This document shows positions 19,363 through 28,474 of a stretch of 51,476 nucleotides of DNA, piece by piece. The notes below the pieces were generated by a model. It worked only from the letters and a program-made list of their open reading frames with translations. It had not been told where the DNA came from and ran no database searches. A program made the translations under genes and the position numbers. Origin of the DNA: Chlorobiaceae bacterium (GTDB lineage Bacteria > Bacteroidota > Chlorobiia > Chlorobiales > Chlorobiaceae). How positions within the stretch are numbered: the stretch's first letter is position 1; each line of letters begins with the position of its first letter. Location of the stretch: positions 9,724-61,199 of the forward strand of contig JAAXVR010000015.1 of NCBI GenBank assembly GCA_013335405.1, read 5' to 3'.

Positions 19363-21258
19363 ATGCCGCAATCCTTCAAATCCGTTTACGAGCAATCCAT
19401 CCAGAATCCCGAACAATTCTGGGCAGAGGCCGCAGAAAACCTTCACTGGTACAAAAAATGGAACCAGGTGCTCGACAAGAGCAACCCGCCATTCTACCGC
19501 TGGTTTGCCGGTGGTGTGACCAACACCTGCTACAACGCTCTTGACCGGCATGTCGACGAAGGAAGGGGTAATCAGACGGCACTCATTTACGACAGTCCCG
19601 TGACCGGCACGAAAACTCGCTATACCTACCGCGAGTTCCGCGACATCGTTGCGCTCTTTGCCGGTGCCCTGCAGTCGAGGGGTGTGCGCAAGGGAGACAG
19701 GATCATCATCTATATGCCGATGATTCCCGAAGCGGTGATCGCCATGCTCGCCTGTGCAAGGCTCGGCGCCATCCACTCGGTGGTTTTCGGGGGCTTCGCA
19801 TCTCACGAACTTGCCGTGAGGATCGACGACTGCAAACCCAAAATCATTATCTCGGCATCCTGCGGCATCGAGCACAACAAGGTCATCGACTACAAGAGAC
19901 TGCTCGACTTCGCCATCGAACTCGCGCACTTCAAGCCGGAAATCTGTATCATCAAGCAGCGTGACCAGCTCAAGGCCGAGCTGAACGAAGAGCGCGACCT
20001 CACCTGGAACCAGTCGCTTCTCGGCGCCGAACCCGTACAGTGCGTCCCGGTCGAATCGTCCGACCCCCTCTATATCCTTTATACCTCGGGAACAACCGGA
20101 CAGCCGAAAGGCATCGTCCGCGACAACGGCGGGCACATGGTCGCCCTGCAGTGGTCCATGAAGAACGTCTACAATATCGAACCCGGCGAAGTTTTCTGGG
20201 CGGCCAGCGACGTCGGCTGGGTCGTCGGCCACTCCTATATCGTCTACGCCCCGCTGCTCCACGGTTGCACGACACTGCTATTCGAAGGCAAGCCTGTCGG
20301 AACACCCGACCCCGGCACGTACTGGAGAATCATCAGCGAATACAACGTCTCTGCCCTCTTCACCGCCCCTACAGCTTTCAGGGCCATCAAAAAGGAGGAC
20401 CCGAACGGCAACTATATCAAACATTACGACCTCTCGAACTTCCGCACCCTCTTCCTCGCCGGTGAACGGGCAGACCCCGACACGGTGAAGTGGGCCGAAC
20501 AGAATCTCAAGGTTCCGGTCATCGACCACTGGTGGCAGACCGAGACCGGCTGGGCGATCGCCGCAAACTGTCAGGGCATCGAACCGGGTCCGATCAAGTA
20601 CGGATCCGCATCGAGGGCCGTCCCCGGCTATAACGTGCAGGTCGTCAATTCCGAGCTCCAGGAGCTTCCTCCGGGCCAGATGGGCGACATCGTCATCAAA
20701 CTGCCCCTGCCGCCGGCAACCATGCTCACGCTCTGGAAAGCCGACAAACGCTTTGAGGAGAGCTACATGACGCAGTTCCCCGGCTACTACCAGACCAGCG
20801 ACGCGGGATATATCGACGAGGACGGATATATCTACATCATGTCGCGCACCGACGATGTCATCAACGTGGCGGGCCACAGGCTCTCGACCGGAGCGATCGA
20901 AGGCGCGCTATGCGAGCACCCGGACGTAGCAGAAAGCGCCGTCATCGGTGTGCACGACGATCTGAAAGGCCAGGTGCCGCTCGGCTTCCTTGTGCTGAAG
21001 TTCAACGTCGACACGCCGCACAGCCAGATCATCAAGCACGTCATCGAATACGTTCGCGAGAACATCGGGCCCGTCGCCTCTTTCAAGCATGCCGTCATCG
21101 TCAATCGCCTGCCGAAAACCCGTTCGGGCAAGATCCTGCGGGGAACCATGCGGAAGATCGCCAACGGAGAGGAGTACACGATGCCCGCTACCATCGACGA
21201 TCCTGCGATCCTCGACGAAATAGCGGAGGCATTGAAAACGATCGGTTACGCAAAATGA
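19363..21258 (+). CDS. prpE: Propionyl-CoA synthetase (PrpE-type acyl-CoA synthetase)
   Basis: A 631-aa AMP-forming acyl-CoA synthetase. Motifs: ILYTSGTTGQPKG (A3), IDHWWQTETGW (A5), the C-terminal hinge after YQTSDAGYIDEDGYIYIMSR, and the catalytic Lys in KTRSGKILRGTM. KGIVRDNGGHMVALQWSM and FYRWFAGGVTNTCYNALDRH are characteristic of PrpE rather than AcsA. It should convert propionate, CoA and ATP to propionyl-CoA; acetate activity is possible. A good ribosome-binding site (AGGGGA) lies 9 bp before the ATG. It is the first gene of the operon; an AT-rich stretch at 19230-19290 (TTTACA and CTTATA-like boxes) could hold the promoter. Confidence 0.85.
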   Translation: MPQSFKSVYEQSIQNPEQFWAEAAENLHWYKKWNQVLDKSNPPFYRWFAGGVTNTCYNALDRHVDEGRGNQTALIYDSPVTGTKTRYTYREFRDIVALFAGALQSRGVRKGDRIIIYMPMIPEAVIAMLACARLGAIHSVVFGGFASHELAVRIDDCKPKIIISASCGIEHNKVIDYKRLLDFAIELAHFKPEICIIKQRDQLKAELNEERDLTWNQSLLGAEPVQCVPVESSDPLYILYTSGTTGQPKGIVRDNGGHMVALQWSMKNVYNIEPGEVFWAASDVGWVVGHSYIVYAPLLHGCTTLLFEGKPVGTPDPGTYWRIISEYNVSALFTAPTAFRAIKKEDPNGNYIKHYDLSNFRTLFLAGERADPDTVKWAEQNLKVPVIDHWWQTETGWAIAANCQGIEPGPIKYGSASRAVPGYNVQVVNSELQELPPGQMGDIVIKLPLPPATMLTLWKADKRFEESYMTQFPGYYQTSDAGYIDEDGYIYIMSRTDDVINVAGHRLSTGAIEGALCEHPDVAESAVIGVHDDLKGQVPLGFLVLKFNVDTPHSQIIKHVIEYVRENIGPVASFKHAVIVNRLPKTRSGKILRGTMRKIANGEEYTMPATIDDPAILDEIAEALKTIGYAK

Positions 21259-21283: not shown

Positions 21284-21691
21284 ATGATCAAAAAAATAGA
21301 CCATATCGCCATTGCCGTGCAGAATCTCGAAACCGCACTCGAGACGTTCGTCAACGTTCTCGGGTGCGACCCGGGCTCGATCCGGATCGAGGAGGTACCG
21401 ACTGAAAATGTCCGGGTGGCGTTCATCCCCGTCGGCGAATCGAAAATCGAACTTCTCGAGCCGATGAGCGAGGAGAGCCCGATATCGAAATTCCTATCGA
21501 AAAACGGCGACGGCATGCACCATATTGCGCTCGAGACCGATGACGTGGCAAACGAGGTGAAACGCATTGAACCTCTCGGCGTGCAGACGCTCGGACAGCC
21601 GAAAGAGGGAGCGGGCGGAAAAACTATTGTCTTCCTCCACCCCAGACAGACAAACAGGGTACTCCTTGAATTCTGTCAGAAAAAGCATTAA
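21284..21691 (+). CDS. mce: Methylmalonyl-CoA epimerase
   Basis: A 135-aa vicinal-oxygen-chelate protein. It starts IDHIAIAVQNLETALE and has VRVAFIPVGESKIELLEP, GMHHIALETDDV and the end NRVLLEF, giving the expected metal ligands (His7, His80, Glu129). It interconverts (S)- and (R)-methylmalonyl-CoA. It lies 25 bp after the synthetase and 28 bp before the carboxyltransferase, in the order in which intermediates are made. Confidence 0.92.
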   Translation: MIKKIDHIAIAVQNLETALETFVNVLGCDPGSIRIEEVPTENVRVAFIPVGESKIELLEPMSEESPISKFLSKNGDGMHHIALETDDVANEVKRIEPLGVQTLGQPKEGAGGKTIVFLHPRQTNRVLLEFCQKKH

Positions 21692-21719: not shown

Positions 21720-23513
21720 GTGAAACACTTTTATCTTCCCTTCGAGAAAAAAGAAGGCTTCAGTTACTCCCGGGAAAGCATCGAACAGCTTTCCGAATAC
21801 GAAAAATACCAGCTCTCCTTCCACCCCGAACGCCCCAAACATCTCGACTACCTCACCGTTTTCGACAACGTGAAGGAGTGCCTCAGGAACGACAGGCACG
21901 GGAGCTGCATCATCCAGACACACCGGGCCACGCTGCGCCAGGGGGACAAGGAGTTCCCCGTCATGCTCATCGGACAGCAGTCCGCACCGACGTCCAATTT
22001 CAAGGAGCTGCACCAGCTCATGAAAAATCCCGAGCTGATCAGAAAATGGAACCAGGGCATGCCGACACCGGCGGCATTCGAAAAGGCAATCAAGGCAATA
22101 ACGCTGGCTGAAAAGGAAAATCGCACCATCATCACGGTCATCGATACAGCCGGTGCCGACCCCACCGAAGAGTCTGAAGGCGGAGGTATCGCCTGGAAGA
22201 TCGGGCGCTGCATGCAGCTGCTTGCGGAATCGAGCGTTCCGACCGTTTCGGTGATCATCAACAGGGGATGCAGCGGCGGAGCGATCGCACTGACCGGTTG
22301 CGATGCGGTGCTCGCGATGGAGTACTCCACCTATCTGGTAATTTCTCCCGAAGCATGCTCTTCCATCCTTTTCCGTACGAGGGATAAAGCCAGTCTCGCC
22401 GCCGAAATATCACAGATAACCGCACGGGAAGCCCTGAAAAACGGCATCGTCGACGATCTCATCCTCGAAAACGAAGGGCCTGCCCATCAGTTCCCCGAAG
22501 CCGCGAAGCAATCGTTCAAGGACACCCTGTTCCTCTGGATCGACAAATTGAACCAGACTCCGAAAAACGATATTTTCCGGAAACGATTGGAACGGTGGTC
22601 GAAAACAGGCCAATGGGAAACCATTACCGAAGAGAAGATACGCTCGTTCGAAAAGCATGTCTCCCTTTTCATTCCGAAACCGAAGAAAGTGCTTTTCGTC
22701 GCCCGTCACAAGAACTGCATCGACGGGGCCGGCAAGAAAAAGCTCGATCCGGTGCTCTATTCGAAGCTGTTTGCCGACAATTTCGTCTGCGAAACCTGTG
22801 GACACCGCTATGTGAGGCTCTCGGCGCACGATTACATCACCTTCATCCTCGACGAAGGCTCATTCACGGAACATCCCGAAACGCGCTACATCGTCGATAA
22901 AGACATCCTCAACTTCCCCGACTACGCGGACAAAATCCTCGAAGCCCGGCAGAAGACCGGAGCTGCATCATCGTTCCTGACCGGTGACGGAGCAATTCAT
23001 GGAGAGCCGGTGGTTTTCTGTGCAACGAATTTCAATTTCCTCGGTGGCTCGTTCTGCATGTCAACAGCGGAAAAAATCTTCCGTGCTTGCCGTATCGCGA
23101 TCGAACGGCAGACACCGCTCATCATCCAGGCCACAGGCGGTGGAGCGAGGATGCATGAAGGATGCTCTTCCATGGTCGGTCTGCCGAAAATGCACGTCGC
23201 GCTCTCGAGCGTGGAAAAAGCCGGTCTGCCGGTCATCACGATCATCACCGACCCGACCCTCGGAGGCGTCGCAATCGGCATGGGTTCGAGAGGCATCAAA
23301 CTTTTCGAACACAATGCCGGCAATATCGGATTTTCCGGTAAACGCGTGATCGAACAGTATACCGGCAAACCGACAACAAAGGATTTCCAGACGACATGGT
23401 GGCTTCAGCAGAAAGGATTTGTCGAAAACACCGCTCGACCCTGGGAGATGCGCGAGGAGATCCTCGGCATCATCCAGATGCACAAAACAAAACTCGACCT
23501 GCAGGAAGCTTAA
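21720..23513 (+). CDS. AccA-AccD fused carboxyltransferase, probable propionyl-CoA carboxylase component
   Basis: A 597-aa fusion of both acetyl-CoA-carboxylase-type carboxyltransferase halves, in the order alpha then beta. Residues about 1-290 are AccA-like (ITVIDTAGADPTEESEG, then GCSGGAIALTGCDAVLAME, then YLVISPEACSSILF). Residues about 340-597 are AccD-like: a zinc-finger remnant with only one clear CxxC pair (Cys357, Cys360), then FNFLGGSFCMSTAEKI, ATGGGARMHEGC and ITDPTLGGVAIGMG. Typical PccB has the two halves in the opposite order. No biotin carboxylase or carrier lies in the operon, so these must be supplied elsewhere. Position between epimerase and mutase argues for propionyl-CoA as substrate; an acetyl-CoA role cannot be excluded. 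Confidence 0.8.
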   Translation: MKHFYLPFEKKEGFSYSRESIEQLSEYEKYQLSFHPERPKHLDYLTVFDNVKECLRNDRHGSCIIQTHRATLRQGDKEFPVMLIGQQSAPTSNFKELHQLMKNPELIRKWNQGMPTPAAFEKAIKAITLAEKENRTIITVIDTAGADPTEESEGGGIAWKIGRCMQLLAESSVPTVSVIINRGCSGGAIALTGCDAVLAMEYSTYLVISPEACSSILFRTRDKASLAAEISQITAREALKNGIVDDLILENEGPAHQFPEAAKQSFKDTLFLWIDKLNQTPKNDIFRKRLERWSKTGQWETITEEKIRSFEKHVSLFIPKPKKVLFVARHKNCIDGAGKKKLDPVLYSKLFADNFVCETCGHRYVRLSAHDYITFILDEGSFTEHPETRYIVDKDILNFPDYADKILEARQKTGAASSFLTGDGAIHGEPVVFCATNFNFLGGSFCMSTAEKIFRACRIAIERQTPLIIQATGGGARMHEGCSSMVGLPKMHVALSSVEKAGLPVITIITDPTLGGVAIGMGSRGIKLFEHNAGNIGFSGKRVIEQYTGKPTTKDFQTTWWLQQKGFVENTARPWEMREEILGIIQMHKTKLDLQEA

Positions 23514-23544: not shown

Positions 23545-25320
23545 ATGACCAACTCCCTTCCTGATTCACTTTTTCAGGAATTTCCGGCAGTGAGCCGGGC
23601 CGAATGGAAAACGAAGGCAACAGCAGAACTCAAGGAAACGCCCTACGAAAAAATCGTATGGAAAACGCCGGACGGGTTCGAGCTCGAACCCTGGTACTCC
23701 TCTGAAGAACGAGACTCATTCCTCAAGGTACCCGCCGACAAACCTGTAAATTCCTGGACAAACTGCCGCCTCATCTCCGTAACGGATCCGCCGGAAGCGA
23801 ACAGTAGAGCGATGAACAGCTTCGTTGCGGACGTTTCAGCGATCGAATTCCGCATCACCGACCCGATTTTCTGCTCTCCGGAAAACCTCTCGACCCTTCT
23901 GTCCGGCATCGAAGCAACCGCACTGCCCGTCTATTTTTCGGGCAATCTGCCTCCGGCAGCCGAACTGCTTCCGGCACTCGCCTCACTTCCGGGGTTCAGA
24001 GGAAACAAAGGCGGTCTTCTGGCCTCACCGCCATTCGTTTCAAAGGAGGCGGATGCCGCATATGGCAAATGGGTGGATTCATTGCCCGGCTTCCGGCTTT
24101 TTCCGGTCGATATGGTACCCTACCATGAAAGAGGCGCGACGCCCGCACGGGAAATTGCCCTTGCCCTTGCCGGAGCGAGCGATTTGCTCTGTCGCTTCAC
24201 CGAAGCCGGCATTCCTGCCGACAGGGTCGCCGCAGCCATGGAAATCATCCTCCCGGTCGGAACCAGCCATTTCGCCGAACTTGCCAAACCACGTGCACTG
24301 CGCTACCTTCTCGGACACCTTCTGAACGCTTATGGAGCCGACGCAGCCCTGCTGCCCCGCCTTTTCGCGAAAACCTCCGGCCGCACGATCTCGCTTCTCG
24401 ATCCGTATACCAACGTACTGCGTCTGACCACCGAGGCGGTTTCAGCCATCCTCGGGGGATACGATACCCTGCAGATCGGAACCTTCGACAACGGGCTGTC
24501 GGTTGAAAACGACATAACCGAACGCATCACCGGCAACATCCATCTGATCCTGCGAAGCGAAGCCGCACTCGAGAGGGTTGTCGATCCGGCATCGGGTTCC
24601 AACTATATCGAAACGCTCACACGCAAGCTCGCCGGATCGGCCTGGGAGACGTTCAAACAGATCGAAGCCGCCGGAGGACTGAGAGCCGCTGAGGAAACCG
24701 GCGTGATCAGTTCCATGCTTGCCGGTTCCGCTGCCTCCGAGAAAAAAGAGCTCGGCAACCGGAAAAAGACCCTGATCGGCGTGAACCGCTACCCATGGCC
24801 TCTCACACCGGAACAGGAAGAGAATATGACCGCCATCGAAACAGCAATTGAAGCCGGTCTGGAAAAAAGCACAGCCGCGTCCTGGGAACTCCTGCGCCTG
24901 AAAACGCTTGCACATGCGAAGAAGAGCGGACACGCTCCTTCACTCTTCATCTGGACCATCGGCGATCCGGCGATCAGCTTCAGGCAGGCGGCTTTCTGCG
25001 AAGACTTTTTCAAATGCGGAGGGTTCCGCATTGAAGGAACGGCCTCCCTTCCCGTCGAAGAAGAATCCTGTCAATCCCTGCTGCAGACCAAACCCGATAT
25101 CGTTGTGCTCTGCATCGCGGACAAAGACCCGGTACCGGTCGCCGAACCGCTCTGCAGCGCGCTGCGTCAGCGACAGCCGGGCATCCTTGTGGTCATGGCC
25201 GGCAAACCTCCGCTTGGTCATGAAAAGCTCCTCGAGGCGGGCCTCGACAGCTTCGTCTATACCGGCGTGAATGTCCGGGATATGCTCGAAACCTACCAAC
25301 GTAAAACCGGAGTGCAATGA
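23545..25320 (+). CDS. mutA: Methylmalonyl-CoA mutase small (beta) subunit
   Basis: 591 aa from [10 protein letters not shown]. The TIM-barrel part includes [56 protein letters not shown] and [13 protein letters not shown]. The C-terminal B12-like domain lacks the DxHxxG cobalamin ligand, as in known small subunits, so it is structural or regulatory. An upstream extension to 23419 overlaps the carboxyltransferase gene and is rejected. The stop overlaps the mutB start in an ATGA, so the two are translationally coupled. Confidence 0.93.
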
Positions 25321-27452
25321 GACCCGACTTTTCAGCCATCGATATTTTTTCTCCTGCAGCAGCTTCGGGATATGACGTACAACCGTCAGTCTGGACAACC
25401 TCCGAAGGCATCGATATCCAATCGCGCTACGGCGAGAAGGACGTCGCCGGAGCGCACCACCTTGATTTCGCTCCCGGATTCGCTCCATTCATCGGAGGCC
25501 CGTATACTACGATGTATGCCACCCGTCCCTGGACCATCCGACAGTATGCGGGTTTTTCGACAGCGGAAGAATCAAACCGTTTCTACAGGCAGAACCTCGC
25601 CGCCGGTCAGAAGGGCCTTTCAGTGGCGTTCGACCTTCCTACCCACCGCGGCTACGACTCCGACCACCCGAGGGTTATCGGCGACGTCGGCAAGGCAGGC
25701 GTGGCGATCGATTCGGTCGAGGACATGAAAATCCTCTTCGACCAGATACCGCTCGGCGACATCTCGGTCTCCATGACCATGAACGGCGCGGTCCTTCCCA
25801 TCATGGCCTTCTACATCGTGGCGGCCGAAGAACAGGGCGTGACACCCGACCGGCTCAGCGGCACGATCCAGAATGACATACTCAAGGAGTTCATGGTGCG
25901 GAACACCTACATCTATCCGCCGGAACCTTCTATGAGAATCATCGCCGACATCTTCCGCTACACCAGCGAAAAGATGCCGAAGTTCAACTCCATCAGCATA
26001 TCGGGTTACCACATGCAGGAAGCGGGCGCCACGGCCGACCTGGAGCTTGCCTTCACCCTCGCCGACGGGCTCGAATACATCCGGACGGGATTGAAAGCCG
26101 GCCTCGACATCGACGCTTTCGCGCCCCGGCTCTCGTTCTTCTGGGCTATCGGCATGAACTATTTCATGGAAATCGCGAAACTGCGGGCTGCAAGGATGCT
26201 CTGGGCGAAAATCGTAAAGCAGTTCAACCCCGTGAGCCCGAAATCCCTCATGCTCCGTTCACACTGTCAGACTTCCGGCTGGAGCCTGACCGAACAGGAT
26301 CCTTTCAACAACATCAGCCGTACCTGCCTCGAAGCACTCGCGGCGGCGCTCGGCCATACCCAGTCGCTGCACACGAACGCGCTCGACGAGGCAATCGCCC
26401 TTCCGACGGAATTTTCCGCGAGAATCGCCCGCAACACCCAGCTCTACCTGCAGGAAGAGACCGATATCACGAAAAGTATCGATCCCTGGGCTGGTTCATA
26501 TTATGTTGAATCCCTGACACGTGAACTCGCAGCAAAAGCATGGAAGATCATCTGCGATATCGAAGAGGCCGGCGGCATGGTGAAAGCGATCGAACAGGGC
26601 ATTCCGAAACTGCAGATCGAGGAAGCCGCAACCCGCAAGCAGGCCCGGATCGACAGCGGGGACGATATCATCGTCGGCATCAACGGTTATCGGACCGAAA
26701 GCAGGACCGATATCGAGCTGCTCGAGGTCGACAACACGAAAGTGCTCCATCAGCAGATCCGGAGGCTCGAATCCATCAAGGCAGAGCGCAACGGCGCGGA
26801 AACGGAACGCGCCATCAAGGCAATCGAAGCGTGTGCGGCTTCAGGCGAAGGCAATCTGCTCGAACTGGCTGTGGACGCTGCCAGGAAAAGAGCTACCTTG
26901 GGAGAGATCTCATCGGCCTGCGAGAAAACCTTCGGACGCTACAAGGCTACGCTCAGGCTCAACACCAGTGTCTACATGTCCCAGATGCAGAACAACACAC
27001 TCTTCAAAAAAGCACAGCGGCTCGCCGACGATTTCGCATCCATCGAAGGCCGCCGTCCGAGAATCATGGTCTCGAAAGTCGGCCAGGACGGCCACGACCG
27101 CGGTGCCAAAGTGATCGCCGCGGCATTTGCGGACATCGGCTTCGACGTCGATATCAGCCCGCTCTTCCAGACCCCTGAAGAGGTCGTGCAGCAGGCGCTC
27201 GACAACGACGTGCATCTGGTCGGCATATCGAGCCTCGCCGCAGGGCACAAGACCCTGATCCCGAAAATCGTCGAGGGGCTGAAATCCCACGGGAGGGAGG
27301 ATATCCTGGTCATAGCTGGAGGCGTCATCCCCGAGAGGGACTATGAATTCCTCTATGAAAACGGGGTGGCAGGTGTTTTCGGTCCCGGCACGGTCATCGC
27401 GGAAGCCGCGATTACTATCCTTGAGAAGCTCATCGCGCGCCAGCAGCAATGA
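25317..27452 (+). CDS. mutB: Methylmalonyl-CoA mutase large (alpha) subunit
   Basis: 711 aa, full length. The barrel domain contains [20 protein letters not shown] (substrate-binding), [37 protein letters not shown] and [20 protein letters not shown]. The C-terminal cobalamin domain has the ligand motif [10 protein letters not shown] (Asp591, His593, Gly596) followed by [12 protein letters not shown]. It isomerises (R)-methylmalonyl-CoA to succinyl-CoA using adenosylcobalamin. It overlaps mutA and meaB by 4 bp each (ATGA), a tight operon that links enzyme and its chaperone. Confidence 0.97.
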
Positions 27453-28474
27453 GCACCGGAAAAATGCCGCCGGATGGTGCTCCCCGCCGACACGAACCGG
27501 ACGCAGACACCATTGTCGGCGGCATCCTCGGGGGCGACAGGCACATGCTGAGCCGGGCCATCACGCTCATTGAGTCGCAGAAGCCGGAGCACCGGCAGAA
27601 AGCCCACGAGATACTCGACCGCTGCCTGAAACACAAATCGGTTTCCATCCGCATCGGCATCACCGGTTCTCCGGGAGCCGGCAAAAGCACCTTCATCGAG
27701 GCTCTGGGTGAAGTTATCATCCGGAGCGGCCTCTCGCTCGCCGTCCTCGCCATTGACCCGAGCAGCCGCCAGACAAAAGGCAGCATTCTCGGCGACAAGG
27801 CACGCATGGAAAAGCTCTCGGGCAGGAAAGAGGCATTCATCCGCCCATCTGCCTCTTCAGGGCACCTCGGCGGCCTCTCGCCGAAAACGCATGAAACCAT
27901 CGTGCTCTGCGAAGCGGCTGGCTACGACGTGATCCTGGTTGAAACCGTCGGTGTCGGCCAGTCCGAAGTGGAGGTGGACACCATGGTCGATTTCATCCTC
28001 CTGCTGATGCTGCCCGGCTCGGGGGACGAACTGCAGGGCATCAAGAGGGGCATCATGGAGATTGCCGACGCCATCGCGATAACGAAAAGCGACGGAGCCC
28101 AGGAAGGGATCGCGCAGTTGTCGAAAGCCGAATTCGAGGCCGCCTTGAGGATGCTGCCGGCGAAATACCCGTTCTGGCAGCGGAGCGTGTTCCTCACATC
28201 GGCCCTTGGAGGGAGAGGAATTGACGAAGTCTGGGGGAACATCACCACATTCATCGAAGAAATCCGCCGTAACGGACTCCTCGCTGAAAACCGCCGCGAA
28301 CAGCTCCGAAACCTGCTTTACGGCATCCTTGAAGGTATGCTGAAAAAAGAGTTCTTCTCCTGTCCCGATGTGACGAAGCTCCGGGAAGGGATCGAACGTC
28401 AGGTCGTATCGGCGGAGCTCAGCCCTTTCACCGGTGCGAACCGGCTGATGGAAGCGTTCACTCGTCGGCGATAA
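27449..28474 (+). CDS. meaB: Methylmalonyl-CoA mutase-associated GTPase MeaB
   Basis: A 341-aa G3E-type GTPase. P-loop [16 protein letters not shown] (Gly73-Ser80), [19 protein letters not shown] (Mg and switch region), [14 protein letters not shown] (Walker B and switch III region) and TKSDGAQEG (base recognition, TKxD). The family (MeaB/ArgK) protects the mutase and gates adenosylcobalamin loading; the direct overlap with mutB supports that role. The last 17 bp overlap the 3' end of the convergent stress-protein gene. Confidence 0.95.

What the first reader, a model, noticed from the sequence alone, without database searches (positions are those of the whole stretch)
21720..23513. AccA-AccD fusion in reversed order serving a propionate operon
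Both carboxyltransferase halves are in one 597-aa protein, alpha first and beta second. Propionyl-CoA carboxylase beta subunits (PccB) usually have the order beta-like then alpha-like. The protein sits between methylmalonyl-CoA epimerase and mutase, and its zinc finger keeps only one clear CxxC pair. It may be an independently evolved propionyl-CoA carboxyltransferase derived from acetyl-CoA carboxylase.
Basis: partly seen in the sequence, partly recalled or inferred. Interest (0 to 1): 0.7.

Follow-up and report, generated by a model that had tools for sequence, protein, structure and literature searches.

The report
AccA-AccD fusion carboxylating propionyl-CoA
Green sulfur bacteria, and a distant group of marine bacteria, appear to fix CO2 onto propionyl-CoA with a single fused protein built like the fat-synthesis enzyme acetyl-CoA carboxylase instead of the standard propionyl-CoA carboxylase; the fit is strong from genomes but the reaction itself has not been measured.

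Summary
Window 21720-23513 (+) encodes one 597-aa protein, AccA-like half first, AccD-like half second, in the operon prpE-mce-CT-mutA-mutB-meaB of a Chlorobiaceae genome that also has stand-alone accA, accB, accC and accD. The fusion is in 55 of 65 genomes of its genus, always with methylmalonyl-CoA mutase. In one complete genome prpE and CT were each removed from the operon while mce, mutA, mutB and meaB stayed. Orthologues (57-61% identity) occur in Ca. Marinimicrobia, behind electron-transfer-flavoprotein genes; there 14/14 genomes have mutase and 13/14 lack a detectable PccB-type carboxyltransferase. No PccA-like biotin carboxylase was found and most CT genomes have only AccC, so CT most likely takes carboxybiotin from the AccC-AccB pair of acetyl-CoA carboxylase and carboxylates propionyl-CoA. 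Substrate and direction are inferred, not shown.

The parts
19363..21258 (+). PrpE-like propionate/acyl-CoA ligase (631 aa)
   Evidence: best NCBIfam PRK10524 propionate--CoA ligase 768.7 bits, under its cut-off of 955; orthologue of 84-97% identity next to CT in nearly all CT genomes
21284..21691 (+). methylmalonyl-CoA epimerase Mce (135 aa)
   Evidence: TIGR03081 135.5 bits, over cut-off 114.95
21720..23513 (+). fused AccA-AccD carboxyltransferase (CT, 597 aa, GTG start)
   Evidence: AlphaFold2 model mean pLDDT 93.7, pTM 0.92
21768..22610 (+). AccA-like half of CT (residues 17-297)
   Evidence: PF03255 2.4e-57; Foldseek to E. coli AccA TMt 0.78-0.81
22260..22283 (+). NRGCSGGA motif (residues 181-188), the place of GEG[GA]SGGA in AccA and RKAYGGA in PccB
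22707..22799 (+). variant zinc ribbon H330-x2-C333 ... C357-x2-C360
   Evidence: invariant in 59 of 59 orthologues; zinc binding inferred
22746..23492 (+). AccD-like half of CT (residues 343-591)
   Evidence: TIGR00515 2.2e-51; Foldseek to S. aureus AccD TMt 0.86
23136..23159 (+). GGGARMHE motif (residues 473-480), the place of SGGARMQE in E. coli AccD
23545..25320 (+). methylmalonyl-CoA mutase small subunit MutA (longest ORF starts 23419; probable start 23545)
   Evidence: PF01642 1.1e-63; TIGR00642 272.7 bits
25317..27452 (+). methylmalonyl-CoA mutase large subunit MutB, with B12-binding domain (711 aa)
   Evidence: PRK09426 1291 bits, over cut-off
27449..28474 (+). MeaB GTPase, mutase chaperone (341 aa)
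   Evidence: PRK09435 451 bits, over cut-off

Best explanation
CT is the carboxyltransferase of a propionyl-CoA carboxylase that is not of PccB type. Propionate is activated by the PrpE-like ligase. The cell's AccC charges a biotin carrier, most likely AccB, with CO2 at the cost of ATP. CT, whose AccA-like and AccD-like halves together form the active site (probably as a dimer), moves the carboxyl group from carboxybiotin to propionyl-CoA. Mce, MutAB and MeaB then turn methylmalonyl-CoA into succinyl-CoA, which enters the reductive TCA cycle. Shown: gene order, domain make-up, kept glycine motifs of both halves, co-occurrence, no PccA found, presence of separate accA and accD. Inferred: substrate, direction, use of AccB/AccC, zinc binding, oligomeric state.
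For: Operon prpE-mce-CT-mutA-mutB-meaB in the window and in the orthologous loci read. CT in 55 of 65 congeneric genomes, all 55 with mutase. In G064 (100% complete, 352-kb contig) ksgA-mce-mutA-mutB-meaB lies without prpE and CT; both genes are gone, each from its own slot, and no PrpE orthologue remains elsewhere. Separate accA, accD, accB, accC in the genome, so CT is not the only ACC. Biotin carboxylases: only AccC and a pyruvate-carboxylase-like one here; 44 CT genomes have a single one. 26 CT genomes lack the transcarboxylase-type 12S protein. Marinimicrobia: CT directly after etfB-etfA-FeS oxidoreductase genes, mutase in 14/14, stand-alone AccA and/or AccD besides, PccB-type in 1/14. 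Propionate assimilation by Chlorobium limicola, probably via propionyl-, methylmalonyl- and succinyl-CoA, is in the literature (PMC11269200). In place of AccA's invariant E and its GQ, all CTs have R and GI, as the PccB-type sequences compared do.
Against: No activity data. The residue at the place of S. coelicolor PccB D422, a known specificity site, is Ala190 in CT, as in E. coli AccA, so the pocket does not by itself say propionyl-CoA. This genome also has a 5S/12S/1.3S transcarboxylase-like cluster and a Na+-pump decarboxylase that could interconvert propionyl- and methylmalonyl-CoA. In Marinimicrobia CT is not beside the mutase genes. No biotin carrier is encoded in the operon.
Confidence: 0.78

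Rival explanations
1. CT runs the other way, or without ATP: it takes the carboxyl group of methylmalonyl-CoA onto a biotin carrier (transcarboxylase or decarboxylase half-reaction), handing it to the Na+ pump or to the 5S subunit, and so makes propionyl-CoA from succinyl-CoA.
For: The genome has an OadB-type Na+ pump with a carrier and a PccB-type subunit (C62) and a 5S/12S/1.3S cluster (C34); the reaction is reversible in principle.
Against: Both of those clusters carry their own PccB-type carboxyltransferase. CT is lost together with the propionate-activating ligase, while mutase, epimerase and the Na+-pump-type carboxyltransferase stay.
Confidence: 0.1
2. CT is a broad acyl-CoA carboxyltransferase (acetyl-, propionyl-, butyryl- or another acyl-CoA) that happens to serve propionate in Chlorobiaceae and branched-chain or odd-chain acyl-CoA breakdown in Marinimicrobia.
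For: AccA-like Ala at the D422 place; an ETF operon in Marinimicrobia suggests acyl-CoA oxidation more widely. Promiscuous acyl-CoA carboxylases are known (PMC7835884, abstract).
Against: Strict link with methylmalonyl-CoA mutase in both phyla.
Confidence: 0.1
3. CT is a second acetyl-CoA carboxylase carboxyltransferase whose place in the operon is incidental.
For: Both halves are of AccA/AccD type by family models and fold.
Against: Stand-alone accA and accD are present; equivalog cut-offs are not met; active-site motif differs from every AccA sampled; never found without mutase.
Confidence: 0.02

Closest known systems
Acetyl-CoA carboxylase carboxyltransferase AccA + AccD (E. coli, S. aureus, Chloroflexus)
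   Same: Both halves by sequence and fold; SGGA and GGARM motifs kept; zinc ribbon in front of the beta half
   Different: One chain, alpha first; HxxC/CxxC instead of CxxC/CxxC; R-[GA]-C-SGGA instead of E-G-[GA]-SGGA; separate clade; sits in a propionate operon
PccB / transcarboxylase 12S type carboxyltransferase
   Same: Proposed reaction; two homologous halves in one chain; R four residues before GGA and a GI motif
   Different: Half order (PccB is beta-like then alpha-like), no partner PccA found in the genome, about 13-16% identity over whole-chain structural alignments
Shewanella oneidensis AccADCB (PDB 9kkm)
   Same: Alpha half before beta half in one chain; the best whole-chain structural match (TMq 0.62)
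   Different: Also carries biotin carboxylase and carrier, 1517 aa, named an acetyl-CoA carboxylase; much weaker sequence match (1.8e-14 against 1e-36 for AccD)
AccD-AccA fusion, beta first (650-aa ORF in G100)
   Same: Two-domain fusion of the same subunits
   Different: Opposite order; its halves fall with stand-alone AccA and AccD, on long branches

Membership tests
AccA/AccD acetyl-CoA carboxylase carboxyltransferase | ACCA and AccD-type carboxyltransferase domains | tested here: met
AccA/AccD acetyl-CoA carboxylase carboxyltransferase | NCBIfam accA and accD equivalog cut-offs | tested here: not met
   189.2 of 357 and 171.8 of 319 bits (accA models), 174.9 of 317 (accD)
AccA/AccD acetyl-CoA carboxylase carboxyltransferase | four-cysteine zinc ribbon CxxC...CxxC in AccD | tested here: not met
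   HxxC...CxxC in 59/59 orthologues
AccA/AccD acetyl-CoA carboxylase carboxyltransferase | GEG[GA]SGGA motif in AccA | tested here: not met
   NR[GA]CSGGA in all CTs; E at this place in 21/21 AccA scored
AccA/AccD acetyl-CoA carboxylase carboxyltransferase | acetyl-CoA as substrate | not testable with these tools
   needs an assay
PccB / 12S / MmdA family | beta-like then alpha-like halves in a chain of about 510 aa | tested here: not met
   alpha half first; mmdA model 79.8 of 998.8 bits
PccB / 12S / MmdA family | clusters with PccB halves rather than AccA/AccD | tested here: inconclusive
   rooted on PccB halves, CT lies beside AccA and AccD, but only one PccB row was used and both stems are very long; family models favour AccA/AccD
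Propionyl-CoA carboxylase (as a function) | encoded with epimerase, mutase and propionate activation | tested here: met
Propionyl-CoA carboxylase (as a function) | a biotin carboxylase and carrier available | tested here: met
   AccC, AccB on C4; which carrier is used is not shown
Propionyl-CoA carboxylase (as a function) | propionyl-CoA carboxylation activity | not testable with these tools
   needs an assay
Methylmalonyl-CoA:pyruvate transcarboxylase | 5S subunit beside the carboxyltransferase | tested here: not met
   no 5S in the CT operon; the 5S lies beside a 12S protein on contig C34

The most novel reading that the evidence does not exclude
An old lineage of fused AccA-AccD carboxyltransferases, separate from both acetyl-CoA carboxylase and PccB, is a dedicated propionyl-CoA carboxylase in two phyla. 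It borrows biotin carboxylase and carrier from fatty-acid synthesis and has reached PccB-like active-site residues (R at -4, GI) by convergence.
Probability: 0.55. Interest if true: 0.65.

Novelty: new variant of a known kind. Interest (0 to 1): 0.52.

Why it matters
Propionate assimilation by green sulfur bacteria through methylmalonyl-CoA has been inferred since 1980, but no PccA was found in these genomes and many lack the transcarboxylase-type 12S protein. This protein would fill the gap. It would be a second solution to propionyl-CoA carboxylation, would correct annotations that call such proteins acetyl-CoA carboxylase, and would give Marinimicrobia, which mostly lack a detectable PccB, a route from propionyl-CoA to succinyl-CoA. 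It also offers a natural case for testing how the AccA/AccD scaffold changes acyl-CoA choice.

Tried and rejected
Chance or artefact: rejected, orthologues in many genomes. Sole acetyl-CoA carboxylase: rejected, stand-alone genes present. Recent duplication of the host's own accA/accD: rejected, the host's genes group with those of other Bacteroidota and CT with Marinimicrobia CT. Loss of the zinc finger: rejected in favour of an HCCC variant. Absence of CT in G072, G074 and G085: set aside, contigs end inside the operon; G026 (80% complete, one mutase fragment) looks the same but was not read; G061, G019, G033, G088 are under 87% complete. D422-type specificity reading: not decisive. Plasmid search found only PrpE and mutase homology. 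Literature searches found no paper naming this fusion, but most subscription journals are not held. The first AlphaFold2 run (23 close sequences) was poor in the finger; the second, with Marinimicrobia CT and AccA/AccD rows, was good. Model coordinates could not be read, so zinc geometry is unchecked.

Full report
Observation. The frame 21720-23513 (+) reads as 597 residues without a stop, starting at GTG. Pfam places ACCA at 17-297 and Carboxyl_trans at 379-555; the best NCBIfam models are accA and accD, all far below their equivalog cut-offs. The order alpha, then beta, is therefore real and opposite to PccB. The genes around it are a PrpE-like ligase (19363), methylmalonyl-CoA epimerase (21284), mutase small and large subunits (about 23545 and 25317) and MeaB (27449), all on the + strand with short gaps or overlaps.

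The genome. The window lies in a 2.47-Mb, 99.99% complete genome. It has a stand-alone AccA next to AccB and AccC, and a stand-alone AccD elsewhere. There are two PccB-type proteins: one between a 5S-like and a 1.3S-like gene (best solved match the transcarboxylase 12S subunit 1on3, 5.6e-213), and one with an OadB-type Na+ pump subunit and a carrier. The only biotin carboxylases found are AccC and a pyruvate-carboxylase-like protein. No fused PccA was found.

Distribution in the genus. CT is in 55 of 65 genomes of the same GTDB genus, named in the genome collection as Chlorobiaceae, including Chlorobium ferrooxidans, Ca. Chlorobium antarcticum and Chlorobaculum thiosulfatiphilum. It was not found as a fusion in the sampled other families of the order and phylum. 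Mutase is in 59 of 65, and every CT genome has it. The operon order is kept wherever a locus was read in full. Of the ten genomes without CT, G072, G074 and G085 end a contig inside the operon; G026 (80% complete, with one mutase fragment) is probably alike but was not read; G061, G019, G033 and G088 are under 87% complete; G011 lacks mutase and the PrpE orthologue too. The tenth, G064, is telling: on one 352-kb contig of a complete genome the order is ksgA-mce-mutA-mutB-meaB, so prpE and CT are each missing from a different slot of the same operon while the genes between and after them stayed. That ties CT to propionate activation, that is, to the step before methylmalonyl-CoA.

Carboxybiotin supply. 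44 CT genomes have a single biotin carboxylase by Pfam search, and 23 of these also lack the transcarboxylase-type 12S protein. An ATP-dependent CT reaction in them must draw on AccC, and most simply on AccB. That is inference; carriers of the Na+-pump cluster remain possible.

Beyond the genus. In the five such loci read, CT follows etfB, etfA and a 4Fe-4S/CCG-domain oxidoreductase gene, a set-up that suggests acyl-CoA oxidation. All 14 of these genomes examined have methylmalonyl-CoA mutase. Most also have a stand-alone AccA and AccD (at least one in all 14), and only one has a PccB-type protein detectable from this query, which does detect PccB types in Chlorobiaceae. So a second phylum, with a different gene neighbourhood, repeats the link between CT and propionyl-CoA metabolism. 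How often Marinimicrobia without CT have mutase was not measured.

Descent. In trees of either half, all CTs from both phyla form one clade (100/100 for the alpha half in the careful tree; 98 and 100 SH-aLRT in the quick trees), while stand-alone AccA and AccD of Chlorobiaceae sit with those of other Bacteroidota and those of Marinimicrobia form their own group. CT falls outside every stand-alone AccA sampled, E. coli, S. aureus and Chloroflexus included, but its stem is very long and the PccB root even longer, so whether it branched from within or beside acetyl-CoA carboxylase is open. Presence in Chlorobiaceae only, within Bacteroidota as sampled, and in Marinimicrobia suggests transfer between the phyla; the direction is not settled.

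Active site and finger. The glycines of both halves are kept: SGGA in the alpha half, GGARM in the beta half. Four residues before GG, all AccAs scored have E and all CTs have R; the four PccB-type PDB sequences compared and the host 12S protein also have R there. AccA's GQ (two residues after its E-E/E-N) is GI in CT, as GGI, GGV or GGL in the PccB-type sequences. These are suggestive of convergence, not proof. At the place of PccB D422 (specificity site, from my own knowledge; PDB 3ib9 and 3iav are D422 variants) CT has Ala, like E. coli AccA. AlphaFold2 with 65 sequences gave mean pLDDT 93.7 and pTM 0.92. Foldseek matches each half to AccA and AccD, and the whole chain best to Shewanella AccADCB, which has the same alpha-beta order.

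Literature. A review reports that Chlorobium limicola assimilates propionate, probably via propionyl-, methylmalonyl- and succinyl-CoA, and lists a methylmalonyl-CoA decarboxylase that uses the Na+ gradient in Chlorobium phaeovibrioides (PMC11269200). No paper in the library was found that describes this fusion.

Verdict. The fusion is real, conserved and tied to the propionate route in two phyla. A propionyl-CoA carboxyltransferase of AccA/AccD type that shares AccC/AccB is the best reading (0.78). It is a new variant of biotin-dependent acyl-CoA carboxyltransferases rather than a new kind of system. Assay of substrate choice is the missing step.

Noticed in passing
L225:2598-5885 (+), L226:2803-6081 (+), L227:1690-5136 (-): In some Chlorobiaceae MutA residues 1 to about 385-399 are fused in frame to MutB residue 2, giving one chain of about 1,100 aa; MutA's C-terminal B12-like part is gone.
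   Followed up: partly
L010:4477-8190: Transcarboxylase-like cluster: 5S-like, 12S-like (best match 12S subunit 1on3) and carrier genes; the 12S gene is in 30 of 65 genus genomes.
   Followed up: partly
L011:3830-4966 and the BCCP and PccB-type genes beside it: OadB-type Na+ pump with a carrier and a PccB-type subunit; the PccB-type gene is in nearly all genus genomes, also in some where no mutase was found (incomplete or broken assemblies).
   Followed up: partly
G014, G028, G036, G013, G083, G018: A second, more distant mutase-family protein in an open frame of about 1,090-1,114 aa, the size of IcmF-type fused acyl-CoA mutases, in six genomes.
   Followed up: no
G100:C38:32221-33786: A beta-first AccD-AccA fusion in a MAG labelled Chloroflexi that also has the alpha-first CT.
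   Followed up: no
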